NCBI RefSeq assembly: GCF_000020985.1
Contig: NC_011296.1
Span: 682,001 to 746,000, forward strand
DNA: 64,000 nt
Source: Thermodesulfovibrio yellowstonii DSM 11347
Lineage (GTDB): Bacteria; Nitrospirota; Thermodesulfovibrionia; Thermodesulfovibrionales; Thermodesulfovibrionaceae
Reading direction: 5' to 3'
This document shows, one piece after another, positions 32,430-48,676 of this stretch. The translations under genes and the position numbers were made by a program. The notes beneath the pieces were generated by a model. It searched no databases and was not told the origin of the DNA. It saw only the letters and a program-made list of their open reading frames with translations. Position 1 is the first letter of the stretch, and each line of letters starts with the position of its first letter.

Positions 32430-32473
32430 AGAATTTTGAATATAATTAAGATTAAACCATAAACGAGGTAAAT

Positions 32474-34693
32474 GTGTTTTTTCAAAAATTAATTAACAAA
32501 TTGATGGCACTTATTGAGAAGTATCATCCCTTTAATCTTAGATATTTTAAGTTTATTGTCACCTTAGCAATGATATTACTTCTTGGAATGGTGCTTTTTC
32601 TTGGTTGGCTTTCAATAAAGAAAATAACAGAGATTGTTACAGAAGATTTTAACCAGCAACAGCTAATGTTAGCAAAACATGCGGCAAATCAGATTGAAAA
32701 TTCAGTTGAGCTTTTAAAAAGAGAAATAACTTTGCTCAGCCTATCTCCAGCGATTCAGTATTCAGAAAAACCAGCGCTGATAAACAGAATGAATATTACT
32801 TTTTCAAGTGTAAAGTATGAAGGTGTAAGAGAGATAAAATTTCTTGAAAACAAGACAAAAAAAATATATAGAATTGTTGAGGGGAAAAAATGTGAAATTG
32901 GGAATATGCAGAAGGAAGATGAAGAATTTTTAAATTGGGCTTCAAAAGAAGAAAATAGAGGAGGAATATTTTTTACGGAAATCACTCATTGTAAAGAAGT
33001 TAAGAATTCTCAGTTACTTATCATGAAAATGGTTATTCCTGTCTGGCAGATATCCATAGATGAATCCCATCCTGTGCCTACTAATAAATTTTCAGGTGCT
33101 ATTGTTTTTACTGTTGATGTTACATATTTAGTAAGCAAGGTAACAAAAAAAATTAAGTCTGGCAAAACTGGATATGCATGGGTAATTGACCATAAAGGAA
33201 CATTTCTCTATCATGAGGAGCAAATGTTTGTAGGACAGAATGCTTTTGAAGCAAGAAAGGGGAAGAAACCGACTATATCTTTTGAGAGAATAAATGAAAT
33301 TCAAAGAGATAAAATGCTAAGAGGAGAAGAAGGAACAAGTTGGTATATTTCCGGATGGCATAGAGGAGTGGAAGGAGAAATAAAAAAGCTCATTGCTTAC
33401 TCGCCTATTAAACTTAAAGAAAGACCCCAGCCTGTTGTATGGTCTATAGCTGTTGTTGCACCAATAAGTGAGGTAGAGGGAGCAATTCACACTGTTCACA
33501 TTCAGCAGATGGTTATTCAGGGAGTAATTGTAGTTATTATTCTATTTGGTGGACTTTTTATAAATTTCATTCTTGTTACTTGGTCAAATATTCTGGAAAG
33601 GGAAGTTGCTAAAAAAACAGCAGAGTTAAAAAAATCTGAGGAAAAATATAAGTCATTAATTGAAAATGCAGAGGATATTATTTTAGCCACAGACAGCGAA
33701 GGTAAAATTCTCTCAATAAATAAGTTTGGTGCTGAATTTTTTAAAAAACAGGAAATTGAACTATTAGGACAAAGTGTATCTGAAATTTTTTCTCCTGATG
33801 GACGTATTCTTGCGATAAATATAAAACAAATTTTTAAAACAGGAGAAAGTAGACAGATTACACACAGAGTTAAATCAGATACAAAAGAGTACTGGTTTAA
33901 TACGAATTTAAGAGCTTTAAAGGATGAGACAGGGAACATCTATTCGGTATTAGGAATTGCTCGTGATATTACAGACAGAAAAAAAATGGAAGAACAGAGT
34001 TACTATACTGAAAAATTGGCTTCTCTTGGAACTCTTGCTGCGGGGGTTGCTCATGAAATAAATAACCCTCTTGCAATAATCTTAGGTTTTACAGATATTT
34101 TGCTTGAAAAAACTTCTCCAGAATCTCAGGAATATGACATTTTAAAAACAATTGAAAAACAGGCAACAAATGCCAAAAGAATAGTGGAAAATCTTCTCAG
34201 TTTTGTGAGACACAAAGAGCATAAGGAACAGATTGTTAATATTAACGAATGTATTGAGACAGTTCTTGATGTAATGAATAACACGATAAGTCTAAATAAC
34301 ATAGAATTAAAAAAGCAGTTACAACAGGATTTACCCTATGTAAAAGGTGATGCTGGAGAACTCCAGCAGGTTTTCTTTAATATAATCAACAATGCTATTT
34401 ATGTTATGAAGGGTGGCGGGGTTTTGACAGTATCAACAAAATACGATGGTCACTGGCTTGAAGTTTGTATTTCCGATACAGGATGCGGAATAAGCAAAGA
34501 ACATAGACAGAGAATTTTTGACCCTTTCTTCACCACAAAAGAGGTAGGTAAGGGCACTGGACTTGGTTTATGGGTGTCCTATAACATTATAAAGAAGCAT
34601 AATGGTATAATTACTTTTGAAACAAGAACAAAAGAAGAGGCAGAAGAAACGGGAACAAAATTTATAATAAGATTACCAGCAGCAAAGGAATAG
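32474..34693 (+). CDS. Cache-PAS sensor histidine kinase
   Basis: 739 aa. Membrane helix about 24-48, periplasmic sensor about 49-345 with Cache features (GYAWVIDHKGTFLYHEEQMFVG near 237), second helix about 350-372, PAS domain about 390-510 (IILATDSEGKILSINKFGAEFF), then the phosphoacceptor GVAHEINNPLAIILG and ATPase boxes NIINNAIYVM, DTGCGI, GTGLGLWVS. It should sense an extracellular small molecule, often an organic acid for Cache domains. The receiver protein 14 bp downstream (34708) is its natural partner. The GTG start follows GAGGT. Confidence 0.93.
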   Translation: MFFQKLINKLMALIEKYHPFNLRYFKFIVTLAMILLLGMVLFLGWLSIKKITEIVTEDFNQQQLMLAKHAANQIENSVELLKREITLLSLSPAIQYSEKPALINRMNITFSSVKYEGVREIKFLENKTKKIYRIVEGKKCEIGNMQKEDEEFLNWASKEENRGGIFFTEITHCKEVKNSQLLIMKMVIPVWQISIDESHPVPTNKFSGAIVFTVDVTYLVSKVTKKIKSGKTGYAWVIDHKGTFLYHEEQMFVGQNAFEARKGKKPTISFERINEIQRDKMLRGEEGTSWYISGWHRGVEGEIKKLIAYSPIKLKERPQPVVWSIAVVAPISEVEGAIHTVHIQQMVIQGVIVVIILFGGLFINFILVTWSNILEREVAKKTAELKKSEEKYKSLIENAEDIILATDSEGKILSINKFGAEFFKKQEIELLGQSVSEIFSPDGRILAINIKQIFKTGESRQITHRVKSDTKEYWFNTNLRALKDETGNIYSVLGIARDITDRKKMEEQSYYTEKLASLGTLAAGVAHEINNPLAIILGFTDILLEKTSPESQEYDILKTIEKQATNAKRIVENLLSFVRHKEHKEQIVNINECIETVLDVMNNTISLNNIELKKQLQQDLPYVKGDAGELQQVFFNIINNAIYVMKGGGVLTVSTKYDGHWLEVCISDTGCGISKEHRQRIFDPFFTTKEVGKGTGLGLWVSYNIIKKHNGIITFETRTKEEAEETGTKFIIRLPAAKE

Positions 34694-34707
34694 AAAGGGA
34701 GGGAAGG

Positions 34708-35127
34708 ATGGCAGAGAAAATTTTAATAGTTGATGATGAACCAGATATGTTAAAGCTTCTCAGCATGATTCTCAGAGAAAAAACTCCTTATGAGATAACA
34801 ACTACGAATAATCCCATTGAAGCAGTTGAGTTGGCAAAAAAAGGTGATTTTGATCTTGTCATAACAGACCTTAAAATGCCAGGGCTTGATGGATTGCAAC
34901 TCCTTGAAGAAGTTAAAAAACGTGATGAAGATGTGCCTGTAATAATAATCACAGCTTATGGAACAATTGATGCAGCTACAGAAGCAATAGAAAAAGGTGG
35001 CTTTGATTTCATAACAAAACCATTTAAAAAAGAGCAGATTCTTTTTACTATAGAAAAGGCTCTTAAATGGTTAAGAGTTCAGCGGGAAAACAAAATGCTA
35101 AAAGAAAAACTTAAAGAAGGTTTATGA
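34708..35127 (+). CDS. Single-domain response regulator
   Basis: 139 aa receiver. The acidic pair is VDDEPD, the phospho-aspartate is in DLVITDLKMPG (about D54), the threonine in IITAYG, and the lysine in FITKPF. There is a short coiled tail (RENKMLKEKLKEGL) like the linker of NtrC-type regulators, but no AAA+ or DNA-binding domain follows. It therefore works as a phosphate shuttle or by protein contact. AGGGAGGG precedes the ATG. It forms an operon with the 32474 kinase. Confidence 0.93.
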   Translation: MAEKILIVDDEPDMLKLLSMILREKTPYEITTTNNPIEAVELAKKGDFDLVITDLKMPGLDGLQLLEEVKKRDEDVPVIIITAYGTIDAATEAIEKGGFDFITKPFKKEQILFTIEKALKWLRVQRENKMLKEKLKEGL

Positions 35128-35198: not shown

Positions 35199-37748
35199 CT
35201 AAATATCCTTAATATGTTTTTTAATGAAGTCTTCTGTGTACATTTGAGCAATAGCATCGTTAAATAAAACCATGTCAAGCTGTTTTGTATAGGCAGTAAG
35301 TTTTCCTAAAACTTCAAGTCTTTTTTCTATTTCTGGTATGCTATACTTGGTCAGCAATGCATCAATTACATCTTCTTTTACCATGACTCTGAATGCCATC
35401 TTCTTTAAGATTGTTGTTATTAAATTTACTCTTCTTAATCTTCTGTCAAGTGCTGCACCACCACCCTTAAAAAAGAATTTGATGTAATTATCATTTATAT
35501 TTTCTCCTGTATAAGCTTCAATCATTGAAAAATGATATCCCAGCCTGATACTAAAATTGACATAGTTTTTAGTTACAATGCAGAAGCTTTTTTTAGCAGT
35601 TTCCATTAACTGTTCTTCGGGAATAGATACTGTATGTGCTACCATTTCAAAAAATCCCTTCGCATCAACAGGTGGAGGTCCGGGCCATTGCATAGACTGC
35701 ATTCCTCTTAAAATAGCCTGAAGAGGAATTGAATATACATCTTCAGGAGTAGCTTTTTTGATTCCTTCTTTTAATCCACCTTCAATATCAAGCACTAAAA
35801 TCCCAATTGGAATACCTGCTATCAAAGGTACAGCATGATGTTCGCTGTCATATCTATCCCACATGGTAAACATTTCATACATAACCATCTCATGACAGAA
35901 TCTTGTAATGTCATGATAGGTTTTGCATTTTTCAGGCTTAAAGTCTTCGCTGGTTGGGTCTACAAGGTTTAAGGGAACTATTAATTTTAGAACTCTCTCA
36001 AGAGTCTTAAATAATAAAGTTTCCTTGAAAGGTTCTTTGGTTTTTTTATAAGCTTCTATTAACTCTTCTACCTTTCCTTCATAAATTATGCAATTTGTAG
36101 CATCTACTGTTATTTCCTGCCCATCTTTAATAGTCTTTGTTGCTATTTCAGTATTAATTAATGTGGGTATATTGTACTCTCTTGACAAAGATGCCATATG
36201 ACCAGTAGGACTTCCTATATCAGTTACAATAGCAGAAGCTTTATTCATTATGATTACATATCTTGGATTGGTATGCTTTGCTACTAAAACAGCACCTTCG
36301 GGAAAATTTTGTAAATCATCTTCTGTTTTGAGGACAAAAGCCTTGCCATAGCCCACACCTTTACAGGCTGTGATACCTCTATCAAGAAGAATATTATAAT
36401 CTTTGATTCTTGTAGGCAGATAAACCTTTGATTCAGTTTTTTTCTCAAGTATTCTCAAAGGTCTTGCTTGTAATATAAAAATACTTCCATCTTCATCAAT
36501 TACCCATTCAATATCCTGTGGAGATTCATAGTAATTTTCAATCTGAATCGCTATTTTTGAAAGTGCAAGAGCCTCTTGTTCTTCTAAGGAGAATTCATCA
36601 CTGCCATTGGGTAATGTAATTTCTTCAATATCACCTTCTTCCTTACATATGAGCATAATATTCTGTTTACTCGGAATTTTTTCTATAAGTTTAAGTTCAG
36701 GTTTTCTTGAAATCACATAGGTTTCAGCATTTACAGCACCGTCAACTATTAATTTTCCAAGTCCTTTAACTGCATTAATTATAATGTTATTGCTGTCAGG
36801 ATTGTTAGGATTTTTAGAATACATAACTCCACCAGCTCTGGCATTAACCATTCTTAATACGCCAACTGCCATAACCATCTCATTTTCTGAAAAACCTTTT
36901 GTTTTGTAGTAAAAAATTGCTCTTCTATTAAAAAGACTTGCCACTACTTTTTTATAGTAATGGCTAATAAGATTCTCTGGTACATTTAAATAGGTAGAGT
37001 ACTGCCCTGCGAAACTGTAATCAGAGTCTTCATGAATGGCACTACTTCTTACTGAGACCATGCATTTTTTCCCTGTTTTTTCTGATAACTCTTTATAAGC
37101 TGTTCGTATAGAATTTTCAATTTCTTCAGGAAGTTGTGAATTTATAATTAGTTCCTGAATTTCCCTGCTTCCTCTTTCAATTTCTTCAATTTTATTAATA
37201 TCAATACTGTTTATTATCTCAGAGATTTTTCCTCTTAATTGGGTATTTTCTAAAAATTTGATAAATGCGTAAGAGGTTATAACAAATCCATCAGGAGTTG
37301 GCAAATTAAGATTATTTTTTAACTCAGCAAGATGGGCAATTTTGCCTCCTGCAATGGTTAAAGAATCCTTTGAAAGTTTTTCAATAGGAATAACAAAATC
37401 TGTAACAGGAATATCAATTTTTGAAGTAAGTGTTTTTTCTATATTTTCATAAATTTCTCTTTGAACTTGCTCTAATACCTTATATTTCCCGTCAGAGAGG
37501 GCATTAAGATTTTTTATTATATCTTCAACGCCCTCTGATATTGATTGAACACTTGTTTTTATGTAATGCATATCAAAAAGATACTCACCAGAGAGCTTTT
37601 CTTCAAGGTCTGCCATAAGACTCAAAACATGATTATTGCTGTTTAGGACTTTCTGGAAATAGGAGTATTTTTCTTTCAAAAGTTCTTTCAATTTTTCTTT
37701 CTCCTCTGTTTTTGCCCTTGATTTAAAAAACCTGAATAAATCTATCAT
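35199..37748 (-). CDS. PEP-synthase/PPDK-like protein with unusual ends
   Basis: 849 aa. Residues about 1-125 are a helical domain not found in PEP synthase. About 125-440 is the PEP/pyruvate-binding ATP-grasp domain (GGKIAHLAEL; VSVRSSAIHEDSDYSFAGQYSTYL; DIEWVIDEDGSIFILQARPLR). About 450-565 is the phosphohistidine swivel domain, with the histidine in DIGSPTGHMASLSREYNIPT. The last 280 residues do not show the TIM-barrel PEP-utilising domain; they are an unfamiliar helical region. So phosphoryl transfer through histidine is likely but PEP/pyruvate chemistry is doubtful. It is divergent from the GntR regulator and probably controlled with it. Confidence 0.85.
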   Translation of the reverse strand: MIDLFRFFKSRAKTEEKEKLKELLKEKYSYFQKVLNSNNHVLSLMADLEEKLSGEYLFDMHYIKTSVQSISEGVEDIIKNLNALSDGKYKVLEQVQREIYENIEKTLTSKIDIPVTDFVIPIEKLSKDSLTIAGGKIAHLAELKNNLNLPTPDGFVITSYAFIKFLENTQLRGKISEIINSIDINKIEEIERGSREIQELIINSQLPEEIENSIRTAYKELSEKTGKKCMVSVRSSAIHEDSDYSFAGQYSTYLNVPENLISHYYKKVVASLFNRRAIFYYKTKGFSENEMVMAVGVLRMVNARAGGVMYSKNPNNPDSNNIIINAVKGLGKLIVDGAVNAETYVISRKPELKLIEKIPSKQNIMLICKEEGDIEEITLPNGSDEFSLEEQEALALSKIAIQIENYYESPQDIEWVIDEDGSIFILQARPLRILEKKTESKVYLPTRIKDYNILLDRGITACKGVGYGKAFVLKTEDDLQNFPEGAVLVAKHTNPRYVIIMNKASAIVTDIGSPTGHMASLSREYNIPTLINTEIATKTIKDGQEITVDATNCIIYEGKVEELIEAYKKTKEPFKETLLFKTLERVLKLIVPLNLVDPTSEDFKPEKCKTYHDITRFCHEMVMYEMFTMWDRYDSEHHAVPLIAGIPIGILVLDIEGGLKEGIKKATPEDVYSIPLQAILRGMQSMQWPGPPPVDAKGFFEMVAHTVSIPEEQLMETAKKSFCIVTKNYVNFSIRLGYHFSMIEAYTGENINDNYIKFFFKGGGAALDRRLRRVNLITTILKKMAFRVMVKEDVIDALLTKYSIPEIEKRLEVLGKLTAYTKQLDMVLFNDAIAQMYTEDFIKKHIKDI

Positions 37749-37792: not shown

Positions 37793-37821
37793 TTGACAAA
37801 GTTTTTTATTGTAAGTATGAT
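37793..37821 (+). promoter_or_regulatory. Sigma-70 promoter of the GntR-SLC13-carbonic anhydrase operon
   Basis: Perfect TTGACA (37793-37798), 17 bp, TATGAT (37816-37821). Transcription should start near 37828, just before the palindromic operator and 60 bp before the gene. Confidence 0.85.
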
Positions 37822-37837
37822 ATATAAAATTACAATG

Positions 37838-37864
37838 TTACATTATAACAATATAATAATGTAA
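37838..37864 (+). promoter_or_regulatory. Palindromic operator of the GntR/UTRA regulator
   Basis: TTACATTAT (37838-37846) and ATAATGTAA (37856-37864) form a perfect 9 bp inverted repeat with a 9 bp spacer. TGTTA-N5-TAACA overlaps its left arm. It lies at about +10 to +36 of the transcript, where a bound repressor would block elongation. This supports autorepression, perhaps with control of the divergent PEP-synthase-like gene. Confidence 0.7.
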
Positions 37865-37887
37865 TAACAATATGATAAGGAGTAAAA

Positions 37888-38628
37888 ATGGTTGAGTTAA
37901 TTAGTAGGGACGAGCATGAAAAGCTATATCTTCAACTATTTGATATCCTGAGAAGGAAAATTGAAAGTAAAGAGTGGACCCCGGGTATGCAGATACCAAC
38001 AGAGGATCAACTCTGCAAAATGTTTAATGTAAGCAGAGCAACTGTAAGAAATGCTGTTTTGGAACTTGTAAGACAGGGATATCTCATCAGGCAACAGGGT
38101 AAAGGAACTTTTGTAAGTAGCAATTATATTTCAGAAGGTTTGATAATGACAACGGTATTTAAAAAGCTCTGGGTTGAAGATGATGCTTTATTTAATAAGG
38201 AAATTCTTGCAAAAACAGTTATGATGCCTGTGGGAAATTTAAGTAAAGAGTTGCATATACCGGAAAACAGACATGTTATATATGTAAAAGTGAGATGGCT
38301 CATTGAGAATGAACCATCAATTCTTCAGGAATCCTTTGTGCCTTTTAATATTTGTCCTCATTTACTTGAAGAAGATATTGAAAACCAGTCAATAATTGAC
38401 CTCTTTGAAAAGAAATATAGCATAAAAACAACAAAAGTCTTAAATTATTTTGATCTATCAATTTTAAATAAAGAAACTGCCCAGTCTTTACAGGTTCCTG
38501 AAAACACCCATGCAATAGAGATGATACAGAAGGTTTTTTCAGGTGATACGGTTGTTCTTTTAAGCAAATTTTATAAAAAAAATGATGGAAATAAATTATT
38601 TATTGCTTTTCAAAGAAAAGCATTATAA
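37888..38628 (+). CDS. GntR-family regulator, HutC subfamily (UTRA)
   Basis: 246 aa. The winged helix-turn-helix is at residues 10-75 (YLQLFDILRRKIESKEW; IPTEDQLCKMFNVSRATVRNAVLELVRQG; RQQGKGTFV). The UTRA ligand-binding domain covers about 90-240 (YVKVRWLIENEPSILQESFVPF; ENTHAIEMIQKVF). HutC-type regulators usually respond to a pathway metabolite, often an organic acid or sugar derivative. It is the first gene of the cluster with the CBS, SLC13 and carbonic anhydrase genes. AAGGAG precedes the ATG. Confidence 0.93.
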   Translation: MVELISRDEHEKLYLQLFDILRRKIESKEWTPGMQIPTEDQLCKMFNVSRATVRNAVLELVRQGYLIRQQGKGTFVSSNYISEGLIMTTVFKKLWVEDDALFNKEILAKTVMMPVGNLSKELHIPENRHVIYVKVRWLIENEPSILQESFVPFNICPHLLEEDIENQSIIDLFEKKYSIKTTKVLNYFDLSILNKETAQSLQVPENTHAIEMIQKVFSGDTVVLLSKFYKKNDGNKLFIAFQRKAL

Positions 38629-38645
38629 ACCTTAGGAGGTGGGGT

Positions 38646-39167
38646 ATGTCAGATGGAAAATTAGTAAAGGATGTTATGATGGGAATATTTGAGTATCCTC
38701 ATATTCCCTACTGGTTCAGCATTGAACAGGCTATCAAAGTTGTAAAGGCTTCTTTTATTCAGCCAAGTAAACACACAGACCCTCTCGCAGTGCTTGTATT
38801 TGATGAAAAGTATAATCTTCTTGGAACTATTACTCTCAAGGATATTTTAAGAGGACTTGAGCCTTCATTTCTTAAACCACCAGCAAAAGCACAGGTTCCA
38901 GAAGAAGAAAAAACAGGGCTCAGTGTTGTCTGGGATAGCCTTTTTACTCAGGAATCAAAAAAACTTGCTCAGAAACCTGTAAGTGAAATCATGGTTCCTG
39001 CAAAACATTTTGTTGACCCTTCAGACCCTGTTACAAAGGCTGCTTATCTTATGATTCATTTTGACCTACCTGTGCTGCCAGTAATTGAAGACAAAAAGAA
39101 ATTTGTGGGCATAGTAAGAATGGTTGAAGTATTTGACACAATCTCAGAAGAAATAATCAAGGAATAG
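38646..39167 (+). CDS. Stand-alone CBS-pair protein
   Basis: 173 aa, two CBS domains (about residues 8-78 and 112-170), with a proline-rich linker between (LKPPAKAQVPEEE). The second begins with the typical VSEIMVP and ends FVGIVRMVEVFDTI. CBS pairs bind adenine nucleotides and gate enzymes or transporters. Its place directly before an SLC13 transporter (9 bp gap) suggests it senses energy state to control uptake. AGGAGGTGG precedes the ATG. Confidence 0.88.
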   Translation: MSDGKLVKDVMMGIFEYPHIPYWFSIEQAIKVVKASFIQPSKHTDPLAVLVFDEKYNLLGTITLKDILRGLEPSFLKPPAKAQVPEEEKTGLSVVWDSLFTQESKKLAQKPVSEIMVPAKHFVDPSDPVTKAAYLMIHFDLPVLPVIEDKKKFVGIVRMVEVFDTISEEIIKE

Positions 39168-39176
39168 GAGGAGGAA

Positions 39177-40688
39177 ATGGCTGAGAAAAAAAGACCAGAA
39201 GGTTTACCTGAACCACCACCAGAAATCTATGTAGCAAAGGAAAAGAGAAAAATTCCATGGAAAAGAATATTTTTTATCTTCTTAGGGCTTGCCTTTTTTC
39301 TGGGAATTTACTTTTCGCCTGCTTGGCCCGATGCTGTTGACCCAATGGGCAAGCACTTCCCCTTAACAAAGGAAGCAAAAGGTGCAATAGCTTTATTTTT
39401 ACTTGCAGGTATATGGTGGGTTTTTGAAGTAGTTCCCATAGGTGTTACAAGTATAGCCATAGGTGTTTTTCAGGCAATATTTGCAATTCGTTCAGCAAAG
39501 GATGCTTTCCGTGATTTTATGGACCCTTCTGTTATGTTTATCTTCGGTTCAGTTGTTGTAGGACTCGCTTTCACAAAAACAGGACTTACGAAACGTTTAG
39601 CATACAATATGCTTAATGTAGTTGGTGAAAGAACCAGCATGATTGTTCTTGGTGCTTTGGTTGTTACCGCCGGACTTGCTCACTTAATGGCACATACTGC
39701 AGCCGCAGCTACCGTTTTTCCAATTCTTCTTGCCATAAATGCCCTCTATGGTGAAGGTGATAAACCAACAAAGTTTGGTAAAGCACTCTTTATAGGGATG
39801 GCTTATGCAGCGGGTGCTGGAAGTATTATTACTTTTCTTGGTGCAGCCCGTGGTCCTGCAGCAGCAGGTATGTTTAAGGAATTTACAGGAAGAGACATTG
39901 GATTTTTTGAGCTTACAAAATATATGTTCCTCATTGGTTGGATAATGGTTTTTCTCATCTGGGTTTATCTCATGATATTCCTTAAACCTGAAAAAAGTAT
40001 TATTCCAGGACTTAGAGACAAAGTAAAGACCATGATGAAAGAACTTGGACCCATGACAGGACAGGAAAAATTTGTCATAATTTGCGTTCTTGCTGTTATT
40101 GCTGTAATGTCTCTTCAATCCTTTGTTCCTGCCCTTAAACCTCTTGACCGCTCTGCCATAATGCTCTGTTCAACTCTTCTTTTCTTCCTTACCGGTGTTC
40201 TTACAATAAAAGAACTTGAAGAGATTCCATGGAACATCATACTTCTTTTCAGTGGTGCAATGAGTATTGGTTTTTGTCTCTGGAAAACAGGCGCTGCTCA
40301 GTGGATGGCAGTTAACTGGCTCGTAATGTTTCAGCAAGCACCATGGATTATATTTGTTCTTGGTATAGCCACCTTTGTTCTCATAATGACCAATTTCATA
40401 ATGAATGTGGCAGCAATAGCCATATCCCTACCTGTTTCTCTTGTTATTGCTCAATATCTTGGTGTAGCACCTGATGTAATACTTTATGCTTCTTTGGTGA
40501 CAGCAGGAATGCCCTTTGTGTTACTTATTGGTGCAGCTCCTAATGCCATCTCCTATCAATCAGGGCAGTTTACACCTGGAGAGTTTTTCAAACACGGTAT
40601 TACAATGAGTATTGTCCTGATTTTAGTTCTTGCCGTATTTCTCGTTACAGTATGGCCCCTTTTGGGAATGCCCATACTTTTAAAGTAG
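39177..40688 (+). CDS. SLC13/DASS-family anion:sodium symporter
   Basis: 503 aa with a hydrophilic N-terminus (about 1-30) and 11-12 membrane helices. SLC13 features are visible: AGIWWVFEVVPIGVTSIAIGVFQ near 76-98, MFIFGSVVVGLAF, AHTAAAATVFPILLAI, and the C-terminal repeat with FIMNVAAIAISLPVSL. Family members carry di- and tricarboxylates or sulfate with sodium. The neighbouring carbonic anhydrase makes bicarbonate or a carboxylate worth considering. The exact substrate is not readable. The next gene starts 10 bp after the stop. Confidence 0.87.
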   Translation: MAEKKRPEGLPEPPPEIYVAKEKRKIPWKRIFFIFLGLAFFLGIYFSPAWPDAVDPMGKHFPLTKEAKGAIALFLLAGIWWVFEVVPIGVTSIAIGVFQAIFAIRSAKDAFRDFMDPSVMFIFGSVVVGLAFTKTGLTKRLAYNMLNVVGERTSMIVLGALVVTAGLAHLMAHTAAAATVFPILLAINALYGEGDKPTKFGKALFIGMAYAAGAGSIITFLGAARGPAAAGMFKEFTGRDIGFFELTKYMFLIGWIMVFLIWVYLMIFLKPEKSIIPGLRDKVKTMMKELGPMTGQEKFVIICVLAVIAVMSLQSFVPALKPLDRSAIMLCSTLLFFLTGVLTIKELEEIPWNIILLFSGAMSIGFCLWKTGAAQWMAVNWLVMFQQAPWIIFVLGIATFVLIMTNFIMNVAAIAISLPVSLVIAQYLGVAPDVILYASLVTAGMPFVLLIGAAPNAISYQSGQFTPGEFFKHGITMSIVLILVLAVFLVTVWPLLGMPILLK

Positions 40689-40698
40689 GAGTAGGATT

Positions 40699-41409
40699 AT
40701 GATTATAAAACCAATTTTAGATAGGATTTTCGGAAAATTCTATAAAGAGTATGACTTCCTCAAAAAATCCTATGATGTTCTTAAGGGTTATGGCTTTACA
40801 GATGATAACGCCATAGCCTCGGTCTGTATCTGCAGGGACGAAATTTCCCAGACTGTAAGAAGTCATGTAAAGAGGATGTGGGGTGAGGCATTTAATTTCT
40901 CCAGTCTTGCCGGACTTTTCACAGCCGGCAAGACTGGTCTTAAAGCCTTTATAAGTCATGCTCCAAAGATTGATGGAAAAGAGCGTTATGTATTCTATGC
41001 CTTTTCCCATATTGCCATTGATGAAAACGAAAACATGGGGGTATGTAAAAGAAAGGGACTTGAAAAATCTCATGCCTGTGGGGCTCTATGCCTTTTTCTT
41101 AATGAACTCAGTGGTGGGAAAATAAACATAAGACTTGATGAAGAGGACATTGAGGAAAGTCTTCTTAAAAGAAGAATTTTAAGGGAACTTAAATACGGTG
41201 AAGTTCCTGACCTTCTTACCCTTACAAAAATCACTTTAAAAGTTATTGTTGAGGATTTAGAAAACATAATTGAAAAGGTTGTGGACTCTAAAAAAGCTGA
41301 CTATGCTGTAATTTCTGGAATTCAAATACATGGTCCTGAAGAAAACTACATAGTGCCAGATGAAGCTTATGTTGTTGTTGATGGTGAAAAGAAAAAATTA
41401 GAGATTTAA
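40699..41409 (+). CDS. LCIB/LCIC-type (theta-class) carbonic anhydrase-like protein
   Basis: 236 aa. The order of conserved blocks matches the LCIB family of algal CO2-concentrating proteins: GFTDDNAIASVCICRDE (C45-R46-D47-E48), then AFNFSSLAGLFTAGKTGLKA, then HAPKIDGKERYVFYAFSHIAI (H104), then SHACGAL (C127). C45, H104 and C127 are the expected zinc ligands, and D47/R46 the pair typical of beta-like enzymes. Family members interconvert CO2 and bicarbonate; some algal ones are inactive. There is no signal peptide, so it is cytoplasmic. It lies between two anion transporters (gaps 10 and 9 bp), which points to handling of inorganic carbon delivered or released by them. Residues 131-236 are less conserved. 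Confidence 0.8.
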   Translation: MIIKPILDRIFGKFYKEYDFLKKSYDVLKGYGFTDDNAIASVCICRDEISQTVRSHVKRMWGEAFNFSSLAGLFTAGKTGLKAFISHAPKIDGKERYVFYAFSHIAIDENENMGVCKRKGLEKSHACGALCLFLNELSGGKINIRLDEEDIEESLLKRRILRELKYGEVPDLLTLTKITLKVIVEDLENIIEKVVDSKKADYAVISGIQIHGPEENYIVPDEAYVVVDGEKKKLEI

Positions 41410-41418
41410 GGAGGAGTC

Positions 41419-43155
41419 ATGAAAAAGCTGCTTTTAATGTCTTTTTTTCTTCTGCTTATTTTTAATTTCTCAGCCTTTGCCTCTGAAGCAGAAAAATCAA
41501 AAGAAAATGTTGACATATTTTATATTTCAGGCTCAATTCTTGATTCCCATAAAGAGCCTGTAAGAGATGCTGAGATAAGTTTGCTTGTAAATGGAAAGCC
41601 TCATAAGTTAATTACAGACCATAAAGAAACGGATAAAACTTTGACGTCTTCACACGGAACTTTCCAGATGAACTTCCATCTTCCACAGGGTGGGATTGAT
41701 AAAGCAAAAATAGAAATTGAAATTGTAAAAAGTTCCTACAAAAGAACAACAATTGAGTTTAAAAAGGAGAATTTCGCTCAAAAAGGAAATGAGTTTTATT
41801 TAAGTAAAGACATAATAGTTCAACGCCATCTCGGACCAGCTTTCTGGATTGCAACAGCTGTCTTCTTACTTGCCTATGCTCTTATATCCTTTGAACTTCT
41901 TCACAGAACTGTGGCTGCTATGATAGGTGCAGCCACTATGCTAATACTTACCTACACTCTTGGAACTTTCAATCCAGAGTTTCACATAATCTCCTTTGAG
42001 AGAGCTATTCAGGCAATTGATATGAATGTCATCTTTCTTTTGATGGGTATGATGATTATCATTGGTGTGCTTAAACATACAGGAGTTTTCCAGTGGTGTG
42101 CCTACATGTCTTATAAGATTGCAAGAGGAAATATTATGATTCTTGCTGTTATATCTTGCTTTTTTATAGCATTCACCTCTGCTTTTCTTGATAATGTTAC
42201 AACAATGCTACTTTACACTCCAGTTCTTATTGAGATTGCCATAGCCCTTAAGATTAATCCTTTATCTCTCTTAATTCCTGGAATCATGGCATCAAATGTA
42301 GGTGGAACAGCAACCCTTATAGGTGACCCACCAAACATAATGATTGGCTCATACACAGGACTTACTTTCATGCAGTTTGTCTACGCTCTTACACCTGTAT
42401 GTATTATAGTTATGCTTGTTCTTGTTTTCTATAATAAATTTTTCTATTCCAAGGAATACAAAAAAGGCAAAGTTGATGATATTAATGCATTTATCAGCTA
42501 CTTAAGGGAAGAATACAAAATCACAGACAAAACCCTTCTTGGATATGGACTTTTCATAATGGCTCTTGTTGTGTCATTCTTTGCAACTCACGGTTTCTGG
42601 CATATGGAGGTGTCAATTCCTGCACTTTTTGGAGCGGGTGTTCTCTTTACCTACGCAGTTTTAACGAAGAAAGTAAAGATGCTTGAGCTGATTGAAAAAG
42701 ACATTGAATGGCCCACTTTGCTTTTCTTTATCTTTCTATTTATCATTGTTGGAGCAGTAGAAGAAGCAGGACTACTTGCTGTCATTGCAGACTGGGTTCA
42801 TAATTTATCAGCAGGAAATTTAACTGTTGCGATATGTTTGATACTTTGGGTCTCTGCCATAATGAGCGCTTTTGTTGACAACATTCCGTTCACTGCTACA
42901 ATGCTTCCTATTGTAGCCTATCTTACAAAGGTGATACCTGGAGCAGAAAGTAATGTTCTCTGGTGGGCACTGGCTCTTGGCGCATGCCTCGGTGGAAACG
43001 GAACATTGATAGGTGCTTCTGCTAATGTTGTTACAATAGGAATTGCTGAGTCTGCAGGGCATAAGATAAGCTTCTTTGGTTTCATGAAATATGCCTTTTT
43101 ATATATGATAATTAGTGTAGCCATCTGCAATGTATGGCTATTGCTTTTCTACTAA
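41419..43155 (+). CDS. ArsB/NhaD (IT superfamily) transporter with periplasmic domain
   Basis: 578 aa. A signal peptide (1-about 22) is followed by a beta-rich periplasmic domain (about 30-135; SGSILDSHKEPVRDAEISLLVNG, like carboxypeptidase-regulatory domains), then 11-12 membrane helices. The transporter part has the ArsB/NhaD signatures NVGGTATLIGDPPNIMIGSY (about 293-312) and LGGNGTLIGASANVV (about 530-545). Family members move arsenite, sodium/protons or dicarboxylates. The N-terminal add-on is unusual and may bind substrate or envelope partners. It belongs to the same transcript as the carbonic anhydrase gene. Confidence 0.87.
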   Translation: MKKLLLMSFFLLLIFNFSAFASEAEKSKENVDIFYISGSILDSHKEPVRDAEISLLVNGKPHKLITDHKETDKTLTSSHGTFQMNFHLPQGGIDKAKIEIEIVKSSYKRTTIEFKKENFAQKGNEFYLSKDIIVQRHLGPAFWIATAVFLLAYALISFELLHRTVAAMIGAATMLILTYTLGTFNPEFHIISFERAIQAIDMNVIFLLMGMMIIIGVLKHTGVFQWCAYMSYKIARGNIMILAVISCFFIAFTSAFLDNVTTMLLYTPVLIEIAIALKINPLSLLIPGIMASNVGGTATLIGDPPNIMIGSYTGLTFMQFVYALTPVCIIVMLVLVFYNKFFYSKEYKKGKVDDINAFISYLREEYKITDKTLLGYGLFIMALVVSFFATHGFWHMEVSIPALFGAGVLFTYAVLTKKVKMLELIEKDIEWPTLLFFIFLFIIVGAVEEAGLLAVIADWVHNLSAGNLTVAICLILWVSAIMSAFVDNIPFTATMLPIVAYLTKVIPGAESNVLWWALALGACLGGNGTLIGASANVVTIGIAESAGHKISFFGFMKYAFLYMIISVAICNVWLLLFY

Positions 43156-43170
43156 AAAGGAGGTTGGAAA

Positions 43171-44100
43171 ATGATAAACTGTCCCTTTGAAAAAGTTTTA
43201 CTTCCTGTTGACAGAAGTGAAAACTCCTTGAGAGCAATAAAATTTGCTGGGGCTTTACTTTCGGGAGTTGATTCTTCAGAAGTCACGCTTCTTTATGTAA
43301 TGACAGGAGGGTATCTAAGTGAAAGAATGAAAAATATTGATTTCAGGGCAGAGTTGATAAAAGAAACGCAGACTTTCAAAAAAATTCGTGAAAAACACAT
43401 TGAGGAAAACATAATACCTTTTCTGACAGAATATGAAGATAATCTTAAGAAATCAGGGTTTAAAGGAACTTTATCAAAATTAGTTGAAGAAGGTGAAGCA
43501 GGAAATAAAATCATTGAGGTTGCGACCCGTGAAAAATTCCAAACAGTAATTATGGCAAGAAGAGGAATGTCAGAGTGGAAGGGATATATTCTTGGGAGTG
43601 TTTCAAACAAGGTAATTCATGGTTTGCTCAATCAAAATATTTACATTGTAGGACAGAAGATAACAGAAAATCCCTTATCCCACATTCTACTTCCTGTGGA
43701 TGGTTCAGAATATTCAATGAAGGCAGTGCAGCATGCAGCATGTCTTGCAAAACAAGTAAAGGCTATACAAAAAATTACAATTCTAAGAGTAATTAATGTA
43801 TCTCTCTATCTTGAAAGAGTAAGACAAGGAATTGACCCTGAGGCAGAAGCAGAAGAAACTCTTTCAAAAGCAAAGAAAATTCTTACAGATGAAGGGGTTG
43901 AAACTGGATTAATTGAAACTAAGAGTGTTGTAGGATTTCCAAAAGATGAAATCATCAAGGAAGTGCAAGAATTTGGCTATAATCTTGTCATAATGGGACG
44001 TAAAGGGAGGTCTGCAATTAAAGACATTGTATTAGGGGGTGTAAGCTCATCAGTTCTAAATAACTGTTTTGAACAGACCATTGCAATAATTAATCAGTAG
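43171..44100 (+). CDS. Tandem universal stress protein (two UspA domains)
   Basis: 309 aa. First UspA domain about 5-160, second about 165-309. The second carries the nucleotide-binding loop G-x2-G-x9-G-x-S (GRKGRSAIKDIVLGGVSSS). The first has ARRGMSEWKGYILGSVSN, also close to consensus, so both may bind ATP. It follows the ArsB/NhaD-like transporter by 15 bp with AAGGAGG before the ATG. Like the 20629 USP it closes a transporter operon, which suggests an energy-sensing role in transport. Receiver genes follow after 9 bp. Confidence 0.93.
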   Translation: MINCPFEKVLLPVDRSENSLRAIKFAGALLSGVDSSEVTLLYVMTGGYLSERMKNIDFRAELIKETQTFKKIREKHIEENIIPFLTEYEDNLKKSGFKGTLSKLVEEGEAGNKIIEVATREKFQTVIMARRGMSEWKGYILGSVSNKVIHGLLNQNIYIVGQKITENPLSHILLPVDGSEYSMKAVQHAACLAKQVKAIQKITILRVINVSLYLERVRQGIDPEAEAEETLSKAKKILTDEGVETGLIETKSVVGFPKDEIIKEVQEFGYNLVIMGRKGRSAIKDIVLGGVSSSVLNNCFEQTIAIINQ

Positions 44101-44109
44101 GTAATCAAA

Positions 44110-44490
44110 TTGGAAAAACTGAAAATTCTTCTTGTTGATGATGAGGTTGATTTTGTAACTACTCTCTCGGAGAGACTTTCTATGAGGGAGTATGATGTAA
44201 AATTTGCTACATCTTCTATTGAAGCAATGCCTCTTTTTTACAGTTATTCTCCACATCTCATTATTCTTGATATAAGAATGCCTGAGATGAATGGAATAGA
44301 GTTTCTGAAGTTGATAAAAAAAATCAATCCAGCTACTGAAGTCATAATGCTTACTGCTTATGGAGATGTAAAATATGTTGAGGAGGCTATGAAAGAGGGA
44401 GCGCTGGAATATATAATTAAACCAATTGATATAAAAGAGCTTATAATAAAGATTGAGAGAGTTAGAGAAAAAATTAAACAAAGGGGGTAA
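44110..44490 (+). CDS. Single-domain response regulator
   Basis: 126 aa receiver. The start is TTG at 44110 (EKLKILLVDDEVDF). The phospho-aspartate lies in LIILDIRMPEMNG, the threonine in MLTAYG, the lysine in YIIKPID. There is no output domain; only a short amphipathic tail (KIERVREKIKQRG). It follows the USP gene by 9 bp and the next receiver starts 6 bp after its stop. A cognate kinase is not adjacent; the 32474 or 50539 kinases are candidates. Confidence 0.92.
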   Translation: MEKLKILLVDDEVDFVTTLSERLSMREYDVKFATSSIEAMPLFYSYSPHLIILDIRMPEMNGIEFLKLIKKINPATEVIMLTAYGDVKYVEEAMKEGALEYIIKPIDIKELIIKIERVREKIKQRG

Positions 44491-44496
44491 TTTCAG

Positions 44497-44940
44497 ATGT
44501 CAAATGAGGAGCTTAAGGCAAATGTTTTATTGGTAGATGATGAAGAACAGTTTTTGAAAGTGGTTTCACAGAGACTTGGTATGAGAGGACTCAAGGTAGA
44601 AGCTGCTACAACTGGTGAAGAAGCAATTAAAAAGGCTGATCAAAGGGACTTTGATGCAATTATTCTTGACCTTGTAATGCCTGGGAAAAGTGGGATAGAA
44701 GTTTTAAAAGAGATAAAAGCTAAACATCCTGATTTACAGATAATTATTCTTACAGGACACGGGACAGTTGAAGCAGGAGTTGAGGCAATCAAAGAAGGAG
44801 CAATTGATTTTATGCAAAAGCCAGTTGATTTTGAAAAGCTTATGAAGAAAATAGAGGAGGCAAAAAACAAGAGATTTCTAATAATAGAGAAGAAACACGA
44901 GGAACATCTAAAAGAAATTCTTCAGAGTAAGCCTTGGTAG
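44497..44940 (+). CDS. Single-domain response regulator with C-terminal tail
   Basis: 147 aa. The receiver is canonical (LLVDDEEQF; AIILDLVMPGKSG; ILTGHG; MQKPVD). Residues about 122-147 form a charged helical tail (KKHEEHLKEILQSKPW). This receiver shares its MRGLKVEAATTGEEAIKKA style with the 49079 receiver (MRELKPDTAYSGEEAIKYA), so they are close paralogues. It is the last gene of the 37888-44940 set. A strong hairpin follows 6 bp after the stop. Confidence 0.92.
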   Translation: MSNEELKANVLLVDDEEQFLKVVSQRLGMRGLKVEAATTGEEAIKKADQRDFDAIILDLVMPGKSGIEVLKEIKAKHPDLQIIILTGHGTVEAGVEAIKEGAIDFMQKPVDFEKLMKKIEEAKNKRFLIIEKKHEEHLKEILQSKPW

Positions 44941-45147: not shown

Positions 45148-46317
45148 ATGCAAAATTTTAAAAGTGTAATTTTTGCATGTACAAATAAAAGTCAAGAAGA
45201 ATGTTTTGTCAGAAAACTTTTTGGCACAAACAAAATCTATAGTGATAAAGTATTGTCAATTGAAAAGGGCGACATTCTTTTTCTCCTCAACATAGATACT
45301 GACACTATTTTTGGTCCTTTTATAGCTGACTCTAAGGGAGGAAAAAATATTGTGCCTGAGGCTTGGCAGGGAAGATATCCCTATCAGGTGAAAGTTGTCA
45401 CAAACGGAGAGATAAAATCATTAAAAAATGCAAAGCAAATTCTCTCAAAATTAAATATTGAATGGCAGACTCATATAGTTGACCGTAAAAAAACTCAAAT
45501 TTTGCTCAATTTATTAGACAATCCTAATTTAGACCTAAGTATGATTAAGCTTCCGAAATCTGAGCAACACGAAAAACCCAGATTAGAAGCGACTACCTTG
45601 TGGGATTACCCCAAACAGAGTTATGGCAAAACCCCTAAGGGAAATAATAAATATCCAGGTGTCACACCTGCCTTTATTATATACAATCTTCTAAAAAGAT
45701 ACACAGAACCGGGAGACCTTGTTTTAGACCCTATGGCAGGTAGCGGAACAACTTTTGATGTATGTAGAGAAGAAGGAAGAAGATGCATAGCCTTTGATAT
45801 CTCACCTACACGTTCAGAGATTATTCAAAATGACGCACGTAGTATTCCTCTTGATAATGAGTCTGTTGATATGATTTTCATTGATTCGCCATATGGAGAT
45901 AACATCAGATACAATGAAAATCCAAATTGTATAGGTAAAATCTCTGCTGAAACAGAGGATTTCTATAATGAACTTGAGAAGGTTATGAAAGAATGCCATA
46001 GAGTTTTAAAACCTGGAAAGATTCTGGCATGGCTTATTGGTGACCAATGGGTAAAGAAAAAATTTACTCCGGTTGGCTTTAGAATATTTGAAAGGCTATG
46101 TAAATACTTTGAACCCGTTGATATAATCTGTGTAGTGAGAAGGGGGCAAACGTCAAATACTGGTGTTTGGTATAACCGCGCGATAAGATTTAACTTTTAT
46201 TTGAGAGGGTTTAAATATCTTCATATCATGCGGAAACCCGATATAAAAACTAAAGAGAGTAAAACAAAGAGAAAAATAAATTGGACTCAATACGAAAGAA
46301 AAAATGAAGATAAATAA
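45148..46317 (+). CDS. DNA methyltransferase with N-terminal DCD domain
   Basis: 389 aa. Residues about 5-85 match the DCD domain of the PUA/EVE-like superfamily (IFACTNKSQEECFVRKLFG; GDILFLLN; FGPFIADSKGGKNIVPEAW; YPYQVKV). DCD and EVE domains are proposed readers of modified bases. Residues about 150-350 are an amino-methyltransferase. LWDYPKQSYG and PAFIIYNLLKRYTEPGD come before motif I (LVLDPMAGSGTT, 191-202), and motif IV is D246-S-P-Y249. The order X-I-IV indicates a gamma-like N4-cytosine or N6-adenine enzyme. The start of the endonuclease gene overlaps its end by 14 bp, so this is the modification half of a type II system. Confidence 0.87.
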   Translation: MQNFKSVIFACTNKSQEECFVRKLFGTNKIYSDKVLSIEKGDILFLLNIDTDTIFGPFIADSKGGKNIVPEAWQGRYPYQVKVVTNGEIKSLKNAKQILSKLNIEWQTHIVDRKKTQILLNLLDNPNLDLSMIKLPKSEQHEKPRLEATTLWDYPKQSYGKTPKGNNKYPGVTPAFIIYNLLKRYTEPGDLVLDPMAGSGTTFDVCREEGRRCIAFDISPTRSEIIQNDARSIPLDNESVDMIFIDSPYGDNIRYNENPNCIGKISAETEDFYNELEKVMKECHRVLKPGKILAWLIGDQWVKKKFTPVGFRIFERLCKYFEPVDIICVVRRGQTSNTGVWYNRAIRFNFYLRGFKYLHIMRKPDIKTKESKTKRKINWTQYERKNEDK

Positions 46318-46990
46318 GCTTTTGAAGCTTTATGAAGATTACAAAGAAAAGTATGGAGATAAGGTTTACAACTATATCTCAGATTTGCTAAAAGAAGCTA
46401 AAAACATTCACAAGGAAGACTGGGAAAAATCTCCCACTCCAAACAGAGATCATGAACAGTCATGGAGGGCTTTTAAAGGTAAGAATTTAGAAAAATTAAT
46501 ACTTTACATAATAAAAGACCAAGTTGAAAGGCTTGGTCTGAAAATTGTAGAAGGAAATACGCTTGAGAGAAAAAGTAGTGAAAATTTAACTGAAGAATTA
46601 AACAGGGTTAAGAGGAATTTACTCATTCACTACGGAGAATTTGGTTCTCATCTTCCAGATGTTGATTTGATAATCTATAATCCAAAAAATTGCGAGGTTA
46701 TTGCAGTAATATCAAGTAAAGTAACTTTGCGTGAAAGAATTGCTCAAACAGGGTATTGGAAATTAAAGCTATCCACTGATTGCGTTACAAAAAATATAAA
46801 AGTTTTCTTTATAACACCTGATGAAGATGGAACACTTACCAAGAAAATACCTGCCAAAAAAGGAAGAGCCATAGTAGAGGTTGATACTGATGGTTGTTAT
46901 GTAATGAGTGATGTCAAGATTGAAGAATCAGATAAAGTAAAAAATTTTTCTAACTTCATTCAAGATTTAAAAAAGTTGCTGAACAACTAA
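46304..46990 (+). CDS. Type II restriction endonuclease, PD-(D/E)XK, CCGG-family-like
   Basis: 228 aa. SWRAFKGKNLEKLI (about residues 51-64) is typical of the helix before the nuclease core. The catalytic site is PDVDLIIYN followed by VISSKVTLRERIAQ (about 113-150), that is D...S-x-K. The LRER segment resembles the R-(D/E)-R motif with which CCGG-family enzymes (such as BsaWI, Cfr10I, NgoMIV) read CCGG. The target site is therefore guessed to contain CCGG; this is weak. It is coupled to the methyltransferase by a 14 bp overlap. An inverted repeat (TTTTCCC...GGGGAAAA, 46991-47031) follows and may end the transcript. Confidence 0.8.
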   Translation: MKINKLLKLYEDYKEKYGDKVYNYISDLLKEAKNIHKEDWEKSPTPNRDHEQSWRAFKGKNLEKLILYIIKDQVERLGLKIVEGNTLERKSSENLTEELNRVKRNLLIHYGEFGSHLPDVDLIIYNPKNCEVIAVISSKVTLRERIAQTGYWKLKLSTDCVTKNIKVFFITPDEDGTLTKKIPAKKGRAIVEVDTDGCYVMSDVKIEESDKVKNFSNFIQDLKKLLNN

Positions 46991-47731: not shown

Positions 47732-48676
47732 TTATTTCCAAATTCCAAGTCCTTTAAGCAATGCTCTTAAGCCTGCAAAAAGAAGCATTGCAATAACAAT
47801 ATATCTAACTATCTTTGGTTTAGCTACGGCAAGGATTCTCACTCCAACTACTGAACCAAGCATTATACCCACAATACTCGGAGCAACCATCATTGGTAGA
47901 ACCGCACCATTGTTAAGATAAATCCATGCTGCAGATGTATCTGTGATTGAGAGAAGAAATTTACTTGTAGCAACAGAGACTTTTAATGGTGCTCCCATTA
48001 AAAGATTCAAAACTGGAACATTTGCCCATCCAGCACCAAGTCCAAACATACCTGCCATTATTCCAATGGCGATGAAAAGAACAAGAGCTTGTGGAGTTCT
48101 ATGCACTTTCCACTCAATCTCTTTTCCTGTTGATATTTCGTGATATATACCATTTATTTTTAGTGCCTGTGAAAGAGCATCTGCTTTCTTAACTTCAGGA
48201 TATTCAGATTTTTTTGCAAGAAGCATTATTGCTACAATCATAAGAATTGTTGCGCCCAAAGCAATATTGACAATGTTAGGCGGAAGAGCAAGTCCTATCA
48301 TAGCACCAACTATGGCAGAAGCTGAAGCAATAAGAGCGAGAGGTATTGCTAACCTTAAATCTGCAAAGCCTCTTTTTAAGAGTCCCGGTCCTGCAGCAAG
48401 GGCACCTGCCAGGGCAACAAAAAGTCCAGCACCTCTTACAAAATCCATATTAAACGGGAAGAAACCACCAACTATTGGAACAAAAAGAACACCGCCTCCG
48501 ACTCCACCTAATACAGCCAAAACTCCGAGTATAAATGTAACAACAAACAAAATAAGGGGCCATGCCCACCATGGCATAGAACTGTCTGAAGGAGTTATTG
48601 TATCAGCAAAAACTGGCGAAACAGCAAGCAGAGAAAAGACTAAAAGAATAAGCAAACTCAGAGACCTTATGTTCAT
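47732..48676 (-). CDS. TauE/SafE-family anion exporter
   Basis: 314 aa. A cleavable-looking N-terminal signal (SLLILLVFSLLAVSPVFAD) is followed by eight membrane helices in two repeats. The repeat signatures are GVLAVLGGVGGGVLFVP (about 50-66) and GIMAGMFGLGAGWANVPVL (about 205-223). A hydrophilic loop (about 155-190) lies between. It is more compact than the TauE at 18610 and only distantly related. Family members export sulfite, sulfoacetate or thiosulfate-type anions. AGGAGGT precedes the ATG. It is divergent from the receiver at 49079, with a MITE-like element between. Confidence 0.88.
   Translation of the reverse strand: MNIRSLSLLILLVFSLLAVSPVFADTITPSDSSMPWWAWPLILFVVTFILGVLAVLGGVGGGVLFVPIVGGFFPFNMDFVRGAGLFVALAGALAAGPGLLKRGFADLRLAIPLALIASASAIVGAMIGLALPPNIVNIALGATILMIVAIMLLAKKSEYPEVKKADALSQALKINGIYHEISTGKEIEWKVHRTPQALVLFIAIGIMAGMFGLGAGWANVPVLNLLMGAPLKVSVATSKFLLSITDTSAAWIYLNNGAVLPMMVAPSIVGIMLGSVVGVRILAVAKPKIVRYIVIAMLLFAGLRALLKGLGIWK

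What the first reader, a model, noticed from the sequence alone, without database searches (positions are those of the whole stretch)
37793..44940. LCIB-type carbonic anhydrase built into a two-transporter, CBS and GntR/UTRA cluster
Seen: ten-bp-spaced genes for a GntR/UTRA regulator, CBS pair, SLC13 symporter, a protein with the LCIB ligand set (C45, H104, C127 and CRDE), an ArsB/NhaD transporter with a periplasmic domain, a tandem USP and two receivers, under one sigma-70 promoter with a palindromic operator. Known: LCIB proteins serve algal CO2 concentration; SLC13 proteins carry carboxylates and sulfate. Inference: an anaerobe's inducible bicarbonate or dicarboxylate uptake module, with the anhydrase converting or trapping carbon and CBS/USP reading energy charge. 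I know of no description of this combination.
Basis: partly seen in the sequence, partly recalled or inferred. Interest (0 to 1): 0.78.

Follow-up and report, generated by a model that had tools for sequence, protein, structure and literature searches.

The report
Carbonic anhydrase paired with sodium-linked transporters
In a heat-loving sulfate-reducing bacterium, an enzyme family best known from algal CO2 capture (LCIB) is co-encoded with an unusual sodium-type anion transporter and a sodium/proton exchanger, a partnership conserved across three bacterial phyla that looks like an undescribed way of handling bicarbonate.

Summary
The window, very probably Thermodesulfovibrio yellowstonii, carries a tightly spaced operon: GntR/UTRA, CBS, DASS (SLC13), LCIB, MamN/ArsB-like transporter, tandem USP, two receivers. 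The LCIB assignment is firm (PF18599 E=1e-54; model matches LCIB/LCIC crystal structures; Cys-His-Cys and CRDE invariant in 20 sequences). The linkage is no accident. In 37 of 68 LCIB loci the same DASS subfamily lies directly upstream, in three phyla; 30 of 33 of these with enough flank also carry a MamN, NhaD or Mrp gene nearby. In one Thermodesulfovibrio clade the DASS is gone and a full Mrp Na+/H+ antiporter operon sits between the same GntR-CBS pair and LCIB-USP. The LCIB-linked DASS has lost its first SNT anion/Na+ motif (AHT in 35/35), so it is unlikely to be an ordinary dicarboxylate or sulfate carrier. The genome has no beta-CA, no evident gamma-CA and no RuBisCO, so this is not a RuBisCO CCM. 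Best reading: a sodium-linked bicarbonate/CO2-handling module, analogous in logic to SbtA-SbtB or DAB but built from different parts. Substrate and catalysis are untested. I found no description of the combination in the open literature searched.

The parts
35199..37748 (-). divergent PEP-synthase-like phosphotransferase (ATP-grasp + swivel phosphohistidine domain, own N- and C-terminal domains, no PEP/pyruvate barrel detected)
   Evidence: Pfam PPDK_N and PEP-utilizers only; H517 invariant in 24 sequences; model residues 116-559 match PEP synthase/rifampin phosphotransferase; divergent beside the DASS-LCIB operon in 22 of 30 loci with enough flank
37793..37821 (+). sigma-70-type promoter TTGACA-17-TATGAT
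   Evidence: TTGACA identical in the window and 4 congeners
37838..37864 (.). dyad TTACATTAT-N9-ATAATGTAA, candidate GntR operator
   Evidence: near-identical in 4 of 5 aligned species, shortened in the fifth
37888..38628 (+). GntR/UTRA (HutC-type) regulator
   Evidence: in 22 of 30 DASS-LCIB loci
38646..39167 (+). CBS-domain protein (second CBS repeat clear)
   Evidence: upstream of DASS in 30 of 31 loci
39177..40688 (+). DASS/SLC13-type transporter, AHT/MNV subfamily
   Evidence: directly upstream of LCIB in 37 of 68 loci
40699..41409 (+). LCIB-family beta-type carbonic anhydrase homologue; C45, H104, C127 zinc set, D47-R46 dyad
41419..43155 (+). MamN/ArsB/NhaD-like ion transporter with signal-like N-terminus and extra N-terminal domain
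   Evidence: PF03600 E=1e-80, MamN model 171 bits (below its cutoff)
43171..44100 (+). tandem universal stress protein
   Evidence: also next to LCIB in the Mrp-type loci
44110..44490 (+). single-domain receiver
   Evidence: at this place only in the close relatives
44497..44940 (+). single-domain receiver
   Evidence: at this place only in the close relatives

Best explanation
The operon encodes a regulated, sodium-linked inorganic-carbon module. Steps shown: a true LCIB-family protein with intact zinc and dyad residues; a distinctive DASS transporter that travels with it; a nearby MamN, NhaD or Mrp gene; and a CBS protein just ahead of the transporter. Steps inferred: the DASS carries bicarbonate, probably with one Na+ through the retained Na2-type site; LCIB equilibrates it with CO2 for the cell's CO2- and HCO3--using reactions (for example pyruvate:ferredoxin oxidoreductase and the biotin carboxylase); the antiporter returns the Na+ and adjusts pH; the CBS protein gates transport by adenylate binding, as SbtB gates SbtA; GntR represses from the dyad just downstream of the promoter. 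In the clade with only Mrp plus LCIB, CO2 hydration would be coupled to the antiporter's ion flux.
For: LCIB. Linkage: DASS directly upstream of LCIB in 37/68 loci, CBS in 30/31, antiporter-type gene in 30/33, in Nitrospirota, Thermodesulfobacteriota and Actinomycetota. Co-occurrence across 176 genomes of the order: 24 have both, 13 LCIB only, 5 DASS only, 134 neither; Fisher p=1e-15, not corrected for kinship. All 5 genomes with the DASS but no LCIB carry a beta-CA, so 29/29 DASS genomes hold one CA type or the other. Transporter swaps around a constant LCIB: MamN, NhaD, Mrp, or GntR-CBS-Mrp-LCIB-USP without DASS, the last a derived clade; one Kofleriaceae locus has SulP upstream. DASS: S150-N151-T152 -> A-H-T and S377-N378-T379 -> M-N-V in 35/35, with invariant R225; three of four sister DASS not linked to LCIB keep the first SNT. 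No PF00484 in the genome or its 15 sampled congeners; hexapeptide hits lie in three longer ORFs only. A biotin carboxylase-type subunit, a bicarbonate user, is present.
Against: No direct evidence of substrate or catalysis. Chlamydomonas LCIB and LCIC, with the same CRDE motif, were inactive in vitro (PMC5876011). The DASS subfamily also occurs without LCIB, and its 45% sister family sits by the same PEP-synthase-like and CBS genes with no LCIB, so its original cargo may be something else. T. yellowstonii did not grow chemolithotrophically in one test (PMC12501866), and RuBisCO-bearing congeners lack the module. MamN-like proteins are only presumed Na+/H+ antiporters; the query is below the MamN cutoff.
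Confidence: 0.5

Rival explanations
1. pH and sodium homeostasis: LCIB supplies protons and bicarbonate for cytoplasmic buffering, the MamN/NhaD/Mrp antiporter exchanges Na+ for H+, and the DASS is the Na+ re-entry route. Carbon supply is secondary.
For: A MamN, NhaD or Mrp gene lies near 30/33 DASS-LCIB pairs, and in one Thermodesulfovibrio clade LCIB stays with a full Mrp operon while DASS is lost; USP neighbours suggest stress; the module is absent from RuBisCO-bearing congeners.
Against: The most constant partner is the DASS-CBS pair, not the antiporter; the DASS shows a specialised pocket kept invariant in 35/35.
Confidence: 0.25
2. Organic-anion or sulfate uptake: the DASS imports a carboxylate or sulfate and LCIB supplies bicarbonate for carboxylation or keeps charge balance.
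For: DASS members characterised so far carry di/tricarboxylates, sulfate or phosphate (PMC5840216); the DASS-CBS-phosphotransferase association is broader than the LCIB link; GntR/UTRA regulators often respond to organic ligands (general knowledge).
Against: SNT replaced by AHT and MNV; Marietou et al. list no DASS sulfate transporter for T. yellowstonii and count CysP and CysZ instead (PMC5840216); the divergent gene is not shown to be a normal PEP synthase.
Confidence: 0.17
3. LCIB is a non-catalytic CO2/bicarbonate-binding regulator of the transporter.
For: Algal LCIB/LCIC are CA-like but inactive in vitro (PMC5876011); LCIB is co-encoded with a CBS protein.
Against: Zinc and dyad residues are invariant in 20 sequences, no other CA was found in this genome, and 5/5 DASS genomes without LCIB hold a beta-CA, which points to enzyme replacement.
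Confidence: 0.08

Closest known systems
LCIB/LCIC family (PF18599; PDB 5k5w, 5b5x, 5b5y)
   Same: fold (TM 0.75-0.84), zinc ligands, CRDE motif; 34-37% identity to algal LCIB/LCIC in the structural alignment
   Different: bacterial, anaerobic, RuBisCO-free host; operon with transporters
SbtA-SbtB Na+/bicarbonate symporter with its adenylate-binding regulator (from own knowledge)
   Same: proposed Na+-coupled bicarbonate uptake with a nucleotide-sensing partner encoded next to it
   Different: transporter is DASS/SLC13, regulator is a CBS protein, and a CA homologue is part of the set
DAB (DabA-DabB; PMC13144422) and cyanobacterial NDH-1/Cup CO2-hydration complexes
   Same: CA-like protein with an Mrp/NuoL-type antiporter in the Mrp-LCIB clade
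   Different: LCIB instead of DabA or CupA; whole Mrp operon; no proof of a complex
DASS/SLC13 anion transporters (VcINDY, NaCT, NaS1)
   Same: family profile; Na2-type Asn and Thr retained
   Different: first SNT is AHT, second MNV; Na1 side chains at 172 and 173 replaced; invariant Arg225, shared with the sister DASS, where VcINDY has Pro

Membership tests
LCIB/LCIC beta-type carbonic anhydrases | profile match to PF18599 | tested here: met
   185 bits vs cutoff 25
LCIB/LCIC beta-type carbonic anhydrases | Cys-His-Cys zinc ligands and Asp-Arg dyad | tested here: met
   C45, H104, C127, R46, D47 invariant in 20 sequences and aligned with LCIB/LCIC
LCIB/LCIC beta-type carbonic anhydrases | LCIB fold | tested here: met
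   pLDDT 92; Foldseek best hits 5k5w, 5b5x, 5b5z, 6kfs, 5b5y
LCIB/LCIC beta-type carbonic anhydrases | CO2 hydration activity | not testable with these tools
   no assay
DASS/SLC13 | DASS profile | tested here: met
   TIGR00785 199.6 bits vs 198.6; PF00939 157.6 vs 27
DASS/SLC13 carboxylate or sulfate carriers | two SNT motifs of the substrate and Na+ sites | tested here: not met
   AHT and MNV in 35/35
MamN antiporter-like proteins (41419-43155) | curated model cutoff | tested here: not met
   MamN 171 of 500 bits; NhaD-type proteins downstream of other LCIBs pass NhaD_1 but not TIGR00775
PEP synthase (35199-37748) | PEP/pyruvate-binding barrel (PEP-utilizers_C) | tested here: inconclusive
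   no Pfam or PDB sequence match for the C-terminal third; the structure comparison barely tests that part
DAB-type vectorial carbonic anhydrase | DabA (PF10070) with DabB | not tested
   PF10070 was not searched in the genome; no protein scanned in the operon matches it

The most novel reading that the evidence does not exclude
An undescribed class of inorganic-carbon uptake in bacteria: an SLC13-family bicarbonate transporter with an LCIB enzyme and a Na+/H+ antiporter, which in one lineage has turned into an Mrp-LCIB system, an independent analogue of DAB and NDH-1/Cup CO2-hydrating pumps. Its use in RuBisCO-free anaerobes would show LCIB at work outside CO2 concentration for RuBisCO.
Probability: 0.35. 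Interest if true: 0.85.

Novelty: new variant of a known kind. Interest (0 to 1): 0.64.

Why it matters
To my knowledge SLC13 proteins are not known to carry bicarbonate, and LCIB is studied almost only in algae, where its catalytic role is disputed. A bacterial operon that ties LCIB to defined membrane partners gives a tractable system to test what LCIB does, and would add a transporter family to the bicarbonate toolkit for engineering CO2 capture. A published toolkit survey of autotrophs counts SulP, SbtA, DAC and known CA families (PMC10880623; a text search there found no SLC13 or Mrp).

Tried and rejected
RuBisCO CCM: rejected, PF00016 absent from this genome; LCIB and RuBisCO coincide in 2 of 37 LCIB genomes. 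Sulfate uptake: unlikely, see rival 2. LCIB partner of DabB: the antiporter in the swapped loci is an Mrp operon (PRK12668 subunit D above cutoff, MrpE/F/G/B/C-type subunits present), not a lone DabB. LCIB fusions: L114 and L128 ORFs with long N-termini gave no second domain and may be start-site artefacts. Rfam and tRNA scans of the window: nothing. Jin et al. 2016 is not held. Literature searches for LCIB with SLC13, and for DASS/Mrp with CA, found no description. No structure comparison listed a match for the C-terminal third of the PEP-synthase-like protein.
Full report
What is there. The stretch 37793-44940 is an operon of eight genes on the + strand with gaps of 6-17 nt. Pfam and NCBIfam give GntR+UTRA, CBS, DASS, LCIB_C_CA, CitMHS (closest to MamN, under its cutoff), tandem USP and two receivers. 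The promoter TTGACA-17-TATGAT (11 of 12 consensus bases) and a 9+9 dyad just downstream of it are real; in four of five aligned Thermodesulfovibrio-group species the block is nearly identical. That GntR binds the dyad is inference.

The genome. The window lies at 682001-746000 of a 2,003,803-base single contig. That length is, from memory, T. yellowstonii DSM 11347; a 2.00 Mb, 34% GC genome is listed for it in PMC5459899, and several same-genus matches bear the name Thermodesulfovibrio. The species is therefore very likely but not proven.

LCIB. PF18599 E=1.4e-54; phmmer finds LCIC 5b5x at 2e-43 and LCIB 5k5w at 2e-42. A model at pLDDT 92 has only LCIB-family entries on top. C45, H104, C127 and R46-D47-E48 are invariant in 20 sequences. 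Activity is not shown; algal LCIB/LCIC with the same motif were inactive alone (PMC5876011).

The neighbourhood is conserved. A scan of named genomes returned 68 loci; the counts below cover 67 of them plus the window. DASS is directly upstream of LCIB in 37 of 68 loci. Of 33 such loci with at least 2.5 kb downstream, 30 carry a MamN, NhaD or Mrp gene within 9 kb on the same strand. CBS precedes DASS in 30 of 31, GntR in 22 of 30, the divergent PEP-synthase-like gene in 22 of 30. The loci cover Nitrospirota, Thermodesulfobacteriota (Thermodesulfobacterium with 85% identical LCIB, implying transfer of the cluster; a Desulfobacterales MAG) and Actinomycetota MAGs. CBS-DASS-LCIB is the smallest unit seen (L095, L109, L110). 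Control: this genome has only two PF03600 transporters, both in the operon, and sampled relatives have zero to six. Over 176 genomes of the order, LCIB and this DASS coincide strongly (24/13/5/134). The counts are not corrected for shared descent.

The swap. In one Thermodesulfovibrio clade DASS and MamN are absent and the order, read in L108, is GntR-CBS-MrpE-F-G-MbhD-(unscanned small ORF)-B-C-D-D-(81-aa ORF)-D-LCIB-USP. Four loci have DASS-LCIB-Mrp. The Mrp-only LCIBs form one clade (100/97) that joins the window's DASS-linked LCIBs with 100/99 support, inside a larger DASS-linked set, so DASS was most simply lost while CA, regulator and antiporter were kept. A Kofleriaceae locus has a SulP permease directly upstream. 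A carbonic anhydrase homologue that keeps company with several kinds of ion or anion transporter points to inorganic carbon or pH, not to an organic substrate.

The DASS. An alignment without gaps near these motifs places VcINDY S146, S150, N151, T152 at A168, A172, H173, T174 and S377, N378, T379 at M409, N410, V411 (site roles and numbering from my knowledge of VcINDY). A172-H173 and M409-N410-V411 are invariant in 35/35, and R225 is invariant; position 168 is A, T or, once, S. Three of four sister proteins of 41-47% identity, not linked to LCIB, keep S-S-N-T in the first repeat; they share R225 and also lack the second Ser. One DASS of 65% identity without LCIB (L167) has AHT but TNV. So the LCIB-linked group lost two or three side chains of the Na1/substrate site and keeps the Na2 Thr and Asn. 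One Na+ per monovalent anion would fit bicarbonate, but this is inference.

Other carbonic anhydrases and carbon fixation. No PF00484 in this genome or the 15 congeners; hexapeptide matches fall in three ORFs of 262, 352 and 453 aa whose lengths suit LpxA, LpxD and GlmU. alpha-CA was not searched. All five genomes with the DASS but no LCIB have a beta-CA (about 2-3% by chance given 67/139 among LCIB-less genomes). RuBisCO is absent here; the two congeners that have it (G009, G012) lack LCIB and the DASS. A biotin-carboxylase-linked subunit (PYC_OADA) exists. Reductive acetyl-CoA genes are reported for T. yellowstonii (PMC5459899), while chemolithotrophic growth was not seen (PMC12501866).

The PEP-synthase-like neighbour. 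It has ATP-grasp and swivel domains (model 116-559 matches PEP synthase and rifampin phosphotransferase), the phosphohistidine, and a C-terminal third without any sequence match. It should not be read as evidence for PEP metabolism.

Verdict. I put 0.5 on it, 0.25 on pH/Na+ homeostasis, 0.17 on an organic or sulfate cargo and 0.08 on non-catalytic LCIB.

Noticed in passing
window 45148-46990: A DNA N6/N4-methyltransferase with an N-terminal Dev_Cell_Death (DCD) domain, a domain named from plants, next to a BsaWI-type restriction endonuclease: a likely type II R-M system directly downstream of the operon.
   Followed up: no
window 31455-35127: PF03547 transporter, dCache-PAS histidine kinase and a lone receiver upstream; a receiver beside the PEP-synthase-like gene recurs in many loci.
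   Followed up: partly
L108:795-12224, also L101, L112, L113, L115: GntR-CBS-Mrp-LCIB-USP operon: a full Mrp antiporter joined to LCIB.
   Followed up: yes
L171, L172, L174: Sister DASS family beside the same PEP-synthase-like gene (in L172 and L174 also CBS), with TauE-family genes nearby and no LCIB.
   Followed up: partly
L069, L070: Thermodesulfobacterium carries the cluster with 85% identical LCIB: transfer between phyla of thermophilic sulfate reducers; L070 lacks detectable GntR and CBS.
   Followed up: partly
L169:2983-10948: Two further GntR-CBS-DASS copies near the LCIB locus of G129, one followed by NhaD and one by CBS2-MamN.
   Followed up: no
L139: The DASS hit in G013 spans in-frame stops in one search; possible frameshift or assembly error.
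   Followed up: no
window 47732-48676: TauE/SafE-family permease about 3 kb downstream.
   Followed up: no
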